Source of the DNA: Prevotella sp.
GTDB taxonomy: Bacteria > Bacteroidota > Bacteroidia > Bacteroidales > Dysgonomonadaceae
Direction: 5' to 3'
Assembly (NCBI GenBank): GCA_031285905.1
Contig: JAITVH010000152.1
Span: forward strand, 1-64,000
Length of the DNA: 64,000 nt
Numbering within the stretch: the stretch's first letter is position 1; every line of letters starts with the position of its first letter. The notes under the pieces were generated by a model that worked only from the letters and a program-made list of their open reading frames with translations, ran no database searches and had not been told where the DNA came from. The position numbers and the translations under genes were made by a program. This document shows, piece by piece, positions 58,770 to 61,217 of the stretch.

Positions 58770-58799
58770 ATTTTAACTAAAAGGTAACAAAGGTGACAC
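58770..58799 (-). repeat. GTGTAACC-type dispersed repeat, reverse orientation
   Basis: Reverse complement reads GTGTCACCTTTGTTACCTTTTAGTTAAAAT; one mismatch to the 5312 copy. Confidence 0.9.
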
Positions 58800-59300
58800 T
58801 TATCCCGGCTTTTTCCATGTATGCAATCTTTCTATGGCCTGCCTCATTACAGTACCCAGCTCCGGGTCGGTAGTCTCTATAATCCATGGCTTAGGTTCTT
58901 TTACTTCCTTATCCTCTTTTTCCTTCTTTTTACGGTCGTTGCGTTCAATAACAAATTTGATAGCTGCCATAACGGGAGCTACTTCCTTTTCTCTGATTAT
59001 CTCTTTCTTCAGGATAGATACATTCGGGTTACTTGGGGAGGGTTCATACTCTCTCCTTGTCTCTTTTATTCTATATCCTTCCAGCTTTTCTTTTAGTGAC
59101 CTTCGGGCAAGTGCCACCAACATTTCCTCACATCTTTCTTTAGCCTCTTCGATGGCTTTCCTGAACTCGGGCTTGTTTTCATACCACTGGTAGTATGTCT
59201 TGCGGCTGATGTCCAGCGATTCGCATATTTCCGCGATGGTGAACAGATCGGTTTCGATCATATTGATCATCGTCCTTACTAGTTTTTCTGTGTACTTCAT
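58800..59300 (-). CDS. phBC6A51/terminase-small-subunit-like HTH protein, orphan
   Basis: LFTIAEICESLDISRKTYYQWYENKPEFRKAIEEAKERCEEMLVALARRSLKEKLEGY. Confidence 0.75.
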   Translation of the reverse strand: MKYTEKLVRTMINMIETDLFTIAEICESLDISRKTYYQWYENKPEFRKAIEEAKERCEEMLVALARRSLKEKLEGYRIKETRREYEPSPSNPNVSILKKEIIREKEVAPVMAAIKFVIERNDRKKKEKEDKEVKEPKPWIIETTDPELGTVMRQAIERLHTWKKPG

Positions 59301-59342
59301 AATCTTTTTCTTTTTGTTGTTATTTATCTGTTATTGTTTTCC

Positions 59343-59425
59343 TGTAGGGGCGAAATATCTTTCGCCCAATGTTCAAATGTGAGCAAATATTTACTGGTTC
59401 GGGCGAATGTTTATTCGCCCCTACA
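59343..59425. repeat. TGTAGGGGCGAA...TTCGCCCCTACA double-hairpin repeat (MITE/REP-like)
   Basis: 12-bp terminal inverted repeats enclosing GGGCGAAATATCTTTCGCCC and GGGCGAATGTTTATTCGCCC. Confidence 0.88.
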
Positions 59426-59474
59426 TGTATAGATAAATTCAGAAAAAAAAGATGAAAAAAGAATAGAAATATTC

Positions 59475-59762
59475 TTATAAAGCACGCAACTTCCGCCACA
59501 GACACCCTAACACTCCCCTACTCTTTTCAGGTACAGCTTCAGGTTCGTCCCGCCTGCTTTCCGTTGCCTGTTTCAGAACTATGCGGTACAAGGTATGCAT
59601 CAATGCGAGGTTCTTATCTATTTTTTGAAGTTGTTGCCGGTGGTCATCGTCTGTGAGGTGCTGCATCAGATAATTTACCATGTTTTTGGTTTCCAGATAG
59701 TTGTTAAGGATCAGGGTAAGAGAAGCATTAATGGTGTCGGGAGCCTTTTCCGACTCTATCAT
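59475..59762 (-). CDS. Hypothetical 95-aa helical protein
   Basis: MIESEKAPDTINASLTLILNNYLETKNMVNYLMQHL...; start overlaps the stop of an upstream 23-codon ORF (ATGA). Confidence 0.6.
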   Translation of the reverse strand: MIESEKAPDTINASLTLILNNYLETKNMVNYLMQHLTDDDHRQQLQKIDKNLALMHTLYRIVLKQATESRRDEPEAVPEKSRGVLGCLWRKLRAL

Positions 59763-59830
59763 TCGTCCATATCCCTGATAATATCGCCGAAGGTAGGAGG
59801 TGACTCTCTGTGGTTGCTTTCGCCTTGCAT
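59759..59830 (-). CDS. Small ORF (23 aa) translationally coupled to the 95-aa ORF
   Basis: MQGESNHRESPPTFGDIIRDMDE*; TGA overlaps the downstream ATG. Confidence 0.4.
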   Translation of the reverse strand: MQGESNHRESPPTFGDIIRDMDE

Positions 59831-60045
59831 AGTTTTATATATATAAAGAAGCGGGAGAACATTTACCTGCCGATTGCACAGGGAGTCGAAGCCCTCATAC
59901 ACGAACAGGAAACGCCTCCCGCCCTATATAATAAGGCGGGTTCGGCATTCTTGCTGCTTTCGTGTATGTGCGATTTTCGACTTTTGTGCAATACGAACCA
60001 GCTAAACGCTTTTACCTTTACCAATATCTATGTCATGTCACCATT
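59828..60045 (-). ncRNA. Candidate structured RNA/leader: ~205-nt extended imperfect hairpin behind a TATCTTTG promoter
   Basis: Nested complementary arms: 59862-59869/59999-60006 (7 of 8), 59873-59880/59985-59992, 59884-59890/59976-59982, 59896-59905/59959-59968 (10 bp), 59918-59923/59935-59940; CATAG/CTATG closing pair 59828-59832/60028-60032. Confidence 0.6.
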
Positions 60046-60052
60046 GACAGGG

Positions 60053-60060
60053 CAAAGATA
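60053..60060 (-). promoter_or_regulatory. -7 box TATCTTTG (minus strand) for the structured RNA / small-ORF transcript
   Basis: Plus strand CAAAGATA directly precedes the hairpin region; no clear -33 TTTG seen. Confidence 0.45.
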
Positions 60061-60143
60061 GGGATATTCTTTTGTTTTTTGTTTAGTCATTATATTGCTT
60101 TATTGTATAATACATCAAATTTTCGATACATTTTGGGGTTGTG

Positions 60144-60225
60144 TGTAGGGGCGGATTATCATCCGCCCGCAATAACCAACGGGCGAAAGATATTTGGCTT
60201 CGCCGATTTTCAATTCGCCCCTACA
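60144..60225. repeat. Second TGTAGGGGCG...CGCCCCTACA double-hairpin repeat
   Basis: TGTAGGGGCGGATTATCATCCGCCC...GGGCGAAAG...TTCGCCCCTACA. Confidence 0.85.
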
Positions 60226-60486
60226 GCGACCAGAAAAAATGCGACAATATTTTTTACCTATTACTTAATCTACAACTATTTACAAAAATAAACGATCAAT
60301 ACCAAATAAAATATTTTAAAAGCAACATAAATTATCTACTGATTATAAGTATGTTACTCCCGTTTTTAACAAGAAAAGCAAGAATATGGTAAATTATCGC
60401 ACAAAATGCGGTAAAATATCTTAATTTAGCGGTAAACTTAAGAAACGGGATTTTGTTAAACCACTTGTACTTATACCACTATAAAT

Positions 60487-60921
60487 ATGGAAGCTGTAAA
60501 AGAGAATAAAAAGAAAGTTCATCAGGGCAGGAATATCAGGATAGCCCGTAATTTCCAGAATATTACACAGGAAGATCTAGCCTTTAAGCTCAACCTGTCG
60601 CAAAGCAAAGTGTCCGATCTGGAACTGAAAGAAACATTGGAAGATGAACTGCTTGATAAATTTGCCGCTGCACTCAATATTCCAATAGGTTTCCTGAAAA
60701 ACTTTGAGCCGCAAGAGTTTATGAAATCATATACAGTTACTGATAATACTCTTAATAATAATGCTGCCGAAAATTCACCTGAGAGCGTAACCCAACAAAT
60801 TATTGGTGATACAGAACAAACATATATTTATAATCCACTAGAAAAAGTTTCTGAACTCTACGAACGGCTTCTTAAAGAAAAGGAACAACAGATAGAGGAA
60901 ATTAAGGGAAAGGGAAATTAA
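60487..60921 (+). CDS. XRE family HTH transcriptional regulator with C-terminal coiled coil
   Basis: GRNIRIARNFQNITQEDLAFKLNLSQSKVSDLELKETLEDELLDKFAAALNIP; LYERLLKEKEQQIEEIKGKGN. Confidence 0.85.
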   Translation: MEAVKENKKKVHQGRNIRIARNFQNITQEDLAFKLNLSQSKVSDLELKETLEDELLDKFAAALNIPIGFLKNFEPQEFMKSYTVTDNTLNNNAAENSPESVTQQIIGDTEQTYIYNPLEKVSELYERLLKEKEQQIEEIKGKGN

Positions 60922-60963
60922 AAACTCTTCATTTTTTTTATTTTCCTTTTCATTTCCTTGGTT

Positions 60964-61053
60964 GTCATGTTGAGGAACGAAACATCTCATATTTTAGAGG
61001 ATTTTTTACTTCGTTCAGAAACAACGTTCGCCGAAGCGAAAGCGAGGCAATGA
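60964..61053 (+). repeat. Degenerate TGTCATGTTGAGG..TTACTTCGTTCAG..GGCAATGACA repeat
   Basis: Similar ends and internal TTCACTTCGTTCAG-like core as 49788-49855. Confidence 0.6.
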
Positions 61054-61217
61054 CAAAGAAAGTATACATTTTATAATATCTCCGGATTTAAAAAGCTCTG
61101 AAGCTATTTTTTATAGATACTTTCAAAGCTTTTCTGTTTTATATTCTGAATCTACATCCCAAAAAAAATAAAACATTTTCTTATATTTGGATTATATAAG
61201 ACTATCCTCTATATACT

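What the first reader, a model, noticed from the sequence alone, without database searches (positions are those of the whole stretch)
58770..61060. Accessory island: orphan terminase-like HTH gene, coupled small ORFs, structured RNA, twin GGGGCG hairpins and XRE regulator
Within 2.3 kb sit a terminase-small-subunit-like gene with no large terminase, portal or capsid gene, a 95-aa ORF coupled to a 23-aa ORF, the structured RNA, two double-hairpin repeats bracketing that block (59343-59425 and 60144-60225), a divergent XRE gene, and other repeats at both outer edges. This could be a phage relic or a domesticated RNA/DNA-binding module.
Basis: inference. Interest (0 to 1): 0.7.

Follow-up and report, generated by a model that had tools for sequence, protein, structure and literature searches.

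The report
Uncatalogued two-fold leader RNA in Bacteroidales
The "island" holds one copy of a large, previously uncatalogued family of structured RNAs that sits just in front of many different (mostly secreted-protein) genes across Bacteroidales, including Bacteroides fragilis, and that appears built to switch between two folds, one of which is a transcription terminator.

Summary
Every listed feature is present, but the block is not one unit. The twin GGGGCG hairpins are dispersed REP-like repeats (46 perfect seeds in the genome). The terminase-like HTH gene is a dispersed single-gene repeat (13 matches here, up to 19 in relatives) with no link to the RNA. The "coupled" 23-aa and 95-aa ORFs are one gene split by a 10-nt deletion. 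What does recur is XRE gene + RNA + small ORF: three copies in this genome, and more in related genera with two unrelated small-ORF families. The RNA is the real find. It has no Rfam match, yet covariance models find it in 68 of 393 genomes of the order (49 of 206 genera, up to 7 copies per genome). The nearest gene 3' of it is on the same strand 123 times of 123, most often starting 50-59 nt downstream, and 64% look secreted versus 24% of other ORFs. Covariation supports two mutually exclusive folds: an extended rod, and two hairpins with complementary apical loops whose 3' hairpin abuts a U-tract. The best reading is a cis-acting transcription attenuator; the signal it senses is unknown. No expression data were available.

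The parts
59847..60014 (-). Structured leader RNA (168-nt modelled core), 5' end at 60014
   Evidence: z -7.05; paralogues 81-83% identical; 34 of 59 pairs with compensatory change
60053..60060 (-). Promoter -7 box TATCTTTG (Bacteroidetes TAnnTTTG type) about 40 nt upstream of the RNA core
   Evidence: sequence; family-wide TAnnTTTG in 67/107 versus 10/208 control windows
59993..60011 (-). Segment S1: 5' strand; pairs with S5 in the rod or with S2 in hairpin 1
   Evidence: folds
59976..59982 (-). Kissing strand 1 (AGUCGAA), complementary to the apical loop of hairpin 2
   Evidence: (helix 3)
59902..59924 (-). Segment S3: 3' strand of the rod's apical hairpin; alternative partner of S5 (terminator stem)
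   Evidence: covariation; fold
59881..59894 (-). Hairpin-2 apical stem-loop GGG-CUUCGACU-CCC containing kissing strand 2
   Evidence: pair next to GG:CC is Watson-Crick in 59/73 versus 28 after swapping
59851..59870 (-). Segment S5: terminal strand, ends directly at the U-tract
59843..59850 (-). U-rich tract after S5 (interrupted in this copy: UUCUUUAU)
   Evidence: 92% of family members have >=8 T of 12 versus 1% in control windows
59759..59830 (-). 23-aa ORF = 5' fragment of the split small gene
   Evidence: 10-nt deletion relative to L002
59475..59762 (-). 95-aa ORF = 3' part of the split small gene (class A, helical)
60487..60921 (+). XRE-type HTH regulator, divergent from the RNA; adjacent at about 10 of 18 RNA loci in this bacterial family
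58800..59300 (-). Terminase-small-subunit-like HTH gene; dispersed multi-copy repeat, not part of the RNA unit
59343..59425 (+). REP-like inverted doublet (GTAGGGGCGAA...TTCGCCCCTAC)
60144..60225 (+). Second REP-like inverted doublet

Best explanation
The RNA is a cis-acting 5' leader that works as a bistable transcription attenuator. In one state it is a long rod: the 5' strand S1 pairs with the terminal strand S5, and the middle strands S2 and S3 form the apical part, which keeps S5 away from S3 and lets polymerase read through into the gene. In the other state it is two hairpins, S1:S2 and S3:S5. Their apical loops are complementary (kissing), and the S3:S5 hairpin ends at a U-tract, so it acts as an intrinsic terminator. 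In readthrough transcripts S5 can also pair with a purine-rich loop just upstream of the start codon. The rod, being more stable, should be the default. Anything that stabilises the 5' hairpin (a ligand, protein or ion: unknown) would switch the gene off. In this genus the attenuated gene is a small helical protein next to an XRE regulator; elsewhere it is mostly a secreted or surface protein. Shown: existence, distribution, leader position, and covariation for both folds. Inferred: the direction of the switch, the trigger, and that it acts in the cell.
For: Rod: 92.7% of cells paired versus 38-44% for slid controls, 34/59 pairs with double changes, no shuffle as high. Terminator fold: the 3' half alone folds with S5 on S3 in 72/75 non-redundant members; mean z -4.56, 88% below -3; window copy z -5.13. 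S3:S5 covariation: non-modal terminal strands pair at 7.29 of 8 positions versus 6.34 +/- 0.11 when swapped; RNAalifold on an unfitted alignment of 3' halves recovers this helix with double changes at 5 of 6 pairs. Terminator-fold-specific GG-N:N-CC closure: 59/73 Watson-Crick versus 28 swapped, maximum 41 in 1000. U-tract 92% versus 1%; TAnnTTTG promoter 67/107 versus 10/208; S5 with downstream loop 14.8 versus 12.3 +/- 0.2. Leader position: nearest 3' ORF same strand 123:0, 5' ORF 68:51; modal gap 50-59 nt. Distribution.
Against: No transcript or termination data were available. S1, S2, S3 and S5 resemble each other or each other's complements, so part of the S3:S5 signal could be a by-product of the other helices. 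A shuffled terminal 8-mer still left S5 on S3 in 60/75 folds, so that fold test is weak on its own. The swap controls reduce but do not remove phylogenetic dependence. The U-tract of the window copy is interrupted, its 5' half alone is not unusually stable (z -0.57), and its downstream gene is split. The downstream genes share no pathway (57 Pfam families among 76 proteins).
Confidence: 0.68

Rival explanations
1. It is an independent small RNA with its own promoter and terminator that acts in trans; its place upstream of genes is incidental.
For: Promoter-like TAnnTTTG box and a terminator-like end; multiple copies per genome; the rod is very stable on its own.
Against: 123:0 same-strand bias and a 50-59-nt modal gap to the start codon across unrelated genes; the terminal strand covaries with a loop beyond the U-tract, inside the mRNA leader.
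Confidence: 0.17
2. It is a mobile DNA hairpin (MITE- or attC-like) that carries a promoter and inserts upstream of genes.
For: Multi-copy, associated with many gene families, sometimes in accessory regions; near-identical copies in some genomes.
Against: Copies are mostly highly diverged while keeping pairing; conserved G-U pairs favour this strand as RNA (columns 6/195, 8/193, 99/126); strict orientation and spacing to the ORF. Target-site duplications and empty sites were not tested.
Confidence: 0.07
3. The XRE + RNA + small-protein unit is a self-contained selfish or defence module (toxin-antitoxin-like, with the RNA as antitoxin or guide); the leaders elsewhere are derived from it.
For: In this family the unit recurs with two unrelated small ORFs, sometimes beside genes that look mobile; three copies in one genome.
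Against: The same RNA precedes HSP70, BspA-like and lipoprotein genes with no XRE; no tandem-repeat antitoxin, and no known toxin or defence domain in the small proteins (PADLOC not run).
Confidence: 0.08

Closest known systems
Transcription attenuators and terminator/antiterminator leaders (including transcriptional riboswitches)
   Same: 5' leader, mutually exclusive helices sharing one strand, one of them a GC-rich hairpin followed by a U-tract
   Different: No Rfam match; four mutually complementary segments giving a rod versus two hairpins with complementary loops; very diverse target genes; ligand unknown; no conserved leader peptide seen
DUF805 RNA (RF03081), a cis-regulatory element of Rfam
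   Same: Cis-element directly upstream of ORFs; lies between our RNA and the ORF in L027
   Different: A separate 68-nt element; only a neighbour at that locus
Type III toxin-antitoxin systems (ToxIN type; recalled from general knowledge)
   Same: Promoter - structured RNA - terminator-like end - small ORF
   Different: No tandem-repeat RNA, no ToxN-like protein match, and the downstream genes vary widely
REP/REPIN repeats (for the GGGGCG hairpins; recalled from general knowledge)
   Same: GTAG head plus a palindrome, inverted doublets, dozens of copies
   Different: No Y1/RAYT transposase found in this 88%-complete genome

Membership tests
Transcription attenuator leader | Located in the 5' leader of genes in sense orientation | tested here: met
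   123:0 strand bias, modal 50-59-nt gap
Transcription attenuator leader | Intrinsic terminator (GC-rich stem directly before a U-tract) | tested here: met
   (computed, not measured)
Transcription attenuator leader | Evolutionarily supported alternative, mutually exclusive fold | tested here: met
   controls do not fully remove phylogenetic dependence
Transcription attenuator leader | Signal-dependent termination in vivo or in vitro | not testable with these tools
   needs transcription assays or RNA-seq
Riboswitch | Specific ligand binding by the RNA | not testable with these tools
   no ligand is suggested by the target genes
Any Rfam 15 family | Score above the gathering threshold | tested here: not met
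Type III toxin-antitoxin | Tandem-repeat RNA antitoxin and ToxN/CptN/TenpN endoribonuclease | tested here: not met
   no tandem repeats in the RNA; no family match for the small protein
Retron or other RT-associated ncRNA | Adjacent reverse transcriptase | tested here: inconclusive
   no RT-like ORF noticed by inspection in the roughly 1.5-kb flanks; not searched with an RT profile
Phage relic | Neighbouring phage structural or packaging genes | tested here: not met
   flanks are PurF-like and secreted-protein genes; the HTH gene is a solo dispersed repeat
REP/REPIN | Dispersed GTAG-headed palindromes, often as inverted doublets | tested here: met
   46 perfect seeds versus 0 control; inverted doublets
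REP/REPIN | Cognate RAYT (Y1_Tnp) in the genome | tested here: not met
   none found, genome 88% complete

The most novel reading that the evidence does not exclude
A new class of order-wide signal-sensing leader RNA in Bacteroidales, possibly a riboswitch for a global signal, that uses an intramolecular kissing-hairpin-to-rod conversion to decide termination upstream of surface and secreted-protein genes.
Probability: 0.4. Interest if true: 0.88.

Novelty: new variant of a known kind. Interest (0 to 1): 0.74.

Why it matters
Few cis-regulatory RNAs are known in Bacteroidales, a dominant gut group. A leader family present in about a sixth of sampled genomes of the order, with named copies in Bacteroides fragilis, B. 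cellulosilyticus, Parabacteroides and Odoribacter, and absent from Rfam, would open regulation of many surface and secreted proteins to direct test. Its two-state architecture makes concrete mutational predictions.

Tried and rejected
Phage relic: rejected. One conserved island: rejected. Coupled short ORF: rejected; it is a split gene. Known Rfam RNA, including 6S-Flavo, Flavo-1 and Bacteroidales-1: no match. Hairpins as boundaries of the block: rejected. RAYT as the mobiliser of the hairpins: none found in this genome. Avd-like or other identity for the small protein: only E = 0.07 and no significant fold match. Plasmid relatives of the XRE protein: none. Literature: searches of the held library found no description; subscription papers and supplements are not covered. 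A first test of the S5-downstream pairing with a badly placed 15-nt window was weak and was replaced; a first automatic search for the kissing helix often picked other helices and was replaced.

Full report
What is there. Minus-strand RNA 59847-60014 folds into a long imperfect hairpin (-78.5 kcal/mol for a 201-nt stretch, z = -7.05, 0 of 200 shuffles). It has no Rfam match at the gathering threshold anywhere in the window, and no relevant match at a permissive threshold. It lies between a divergent XRE gene and a small ORF, with a Bacteroidetes-type -7 box (TATCTTTG) about 40 nt upstream.

The block taken apart. The genome has two more copies of the arrangement: C124 (L002: XRE, RNA, small ORF, HTH) and C156 (L003: XRE, RNA, small ORF, no HTH). 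The RNA is 81-83% identical to the window copy, while the small protein falls to about 43% in C156. In L002 the small protein is one 120-aa ORF; a 10-nt deletion in the window copy splits it into the 23-aa and 95-aa pieces. The HTH gene has 13 matches in this genome (full-length copies at 94-100% identity, and a second group at 63-64%) and up to 19 in other species of the genus. Copies sit between unrelated genes as repeats of roughly 560-800 bp, often with a GGGGCG hairpin just upstream, and none of the 20 further loci examined carries the RNA. The hairpin seed TGTAGGGGCGAA occurs 46 times in the genome against 0 for the reversed control. So the hairpins and the HTH gene are dispersed repeats that happen to share the site. 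XRE adjacency to the RNA holds at about 10 of 18 RNA loci of this bacterial family, with two unrelated small-protein families downstream (class A like the 95-aa protein; class B, e.g. L016 and L017). Neither has a significant Pfam or NCBIfam match. A single-sequence model of the 95-aa protein is helical (pLDDT 79) and has no significant PDB fold match.

The RNA is a large family. A covariance model from the three copies found relatives in other genera. On 11 sequences, 34 of 59 pairs show changes on both sides, 92.7% of cells pair against 38-44% for slid controls, and no shuffle reached the observed values. A second model found matches in 68 of 393 genomes of the order (49 of 206 genera, up to 7 per genome) but in only 6 of 396 genomes drawn across the phylum, so it is mainly found in this order. 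These are probably lower bounds because the first-pass filter is strict. An independent DNA pattern over 84,980 named genomes gave 49 stretches, 43 of which score with the model, including Bacteroides fragilis, B. cellulosilyticus, Parabacteroides and several copies in Odoribacter lunatus. Distant members have no Rfam match at the RNA itself.

It is a leader. Over all loci the nearest ORF 3' of the RNA is on the same strand 123 times and opposite 0 times; on the 5' side it is 68 to 51. The start codon most often lies 50-59 nt past the RNA. By a simple hydrophobicity rule 72 of 113 distinct downstream proteins look secreted, against 94 of 392 other ORFs in the same loci. Downstream families include BspA-type LRR, BACON, beta-barrels, HSP70, an MCP and a LytTR regulator, besides many lipoproteins. 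In Bacteroides species it precedes a protein of 78-80 aa.

Two folds. The 3' half alone (from the 3' strand of the rod's apical hairpin to the U-tract) folds into a hairpin that ends at the U-tract in 72 of 75 non-redundant members, mean z -4.56; the window copy gives -37.8 kcal/mol, z -5.13. The U-tract is present in 92% of members against 1% of control windows. In full-length folds the terminal strand pairs with the 5' end instead in 62 of 75. The terminal strand therefore has competing partners. Covariation supports the terminator pairing: among members with a non-modal terminal strand 7.29 of 8 positions pair against 6.34 +/- 0.11 after swapping, e.g. L042 GCGTGAGG:CCTCACGC, L052 GTGTGGAG:CTCCACAC, L019 GCGGAAGG:CCTTCCGC, L101 GTGGGCTT:AAGCCCAC. 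RNAalifold on an unfitted alignment of 3' halves returns the same base helix with double changes at 5 of 6 pairs. The 3' hairpin ends in a stem-loop closed by GG-N:N-CC, a pairing that exists only in this fold; N:N is Watson-Crick in 59 of 73, against 28 after swapping. Its loop is complementary (6-11 nt) to a strand in the 5' half, and the 5' half alone pairs its two arms around the interior in 74 of 75. So the RNA can exist as two hairpins with complementary loops or as one rod. The terminal strand also covaries with a purine-rich loop between U-tract and start codon (14.8 against 12.3 +/- 0.2 swapped).

Mechanism. The anatomy fits a transcription attenuator. The rod is more stable (mean -66.3 against -50.9 kcal/mol for the split fold) and its apical part is transcribed before the terminal strand, so readthrough is the likely default. 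Stabilising the 5' hairpin would free the terminator strand. The direction and the signal are inference. No conserved leader peptide was seen.

Limits. No expression data were available. The swap controls reduce but do not remove phylogenetic dependence. The segments resemble each other, so evidence for one helix partly leaks into another; the fold-specific GG-N:N-CC closure and the non-modal terminal strands are the cleanest tests. The window copy is a poor representative, with an interrupted U-tract and a split downstream gene.

Known or new. The literature held here describes no such element. It is filed as a new variant of a known kind (attenuator leader), not as a riboswitch, because no ligand was tested.

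Noticed in passing
58800-59300 and L180-L199: The terminase-small-subunit-like HTH gene is a dispersed single-gene repeat, near-identical within a genome (92-98% in G001) and often beside a GGGGCG REP-like hairpin, with no transposase seen in the repeat and no Y1_Tnp found in this genome. How it spreads is unexplained.
   Followed up: partly
60958-61053; also L002 about 60-170 and L003 about 2450-2515: Another dispersed palindromic repeat (TGTCATnnTGAGGAACGAA...TTCGTTC...ATGACA type) near the edges of all three XRE/RNA loci.
   Followed up: no
L008 and L010: Distant class A small proteins near an XRE gene with no detectable RNA, so the protein-XRE pair may exist without the leader.
   Followed up: partly
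L027:1703-1768 and 2667-2735: Rfam DUF805 RNA sits directly between our RNA and the ORF, and again before the next ORF.
   Followed up: no
L015, L017, L021: In relatives the XRE/RNA unit lies beside genes that, by inspection, look like a mobilisation protein, a three-Cys-motif partner protein and a KilA-N protein, suggesting mobile or accessory regions.
   Followed up: no
L136, L137, L142, L145, L157, L169: In Bacteroides species the RNA precedes a small (78-80 aa) protein weakly like a T9SS sorting tail (E = 0.018 for L137, below the family cut-off).
   Followed up: partly
L002:927-1286: The class A small protein has a very weak match to the diversity-generating retroelement accessory protein Avd (E = 0.07); probably chance among helical proteins.
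   Followed up: partly
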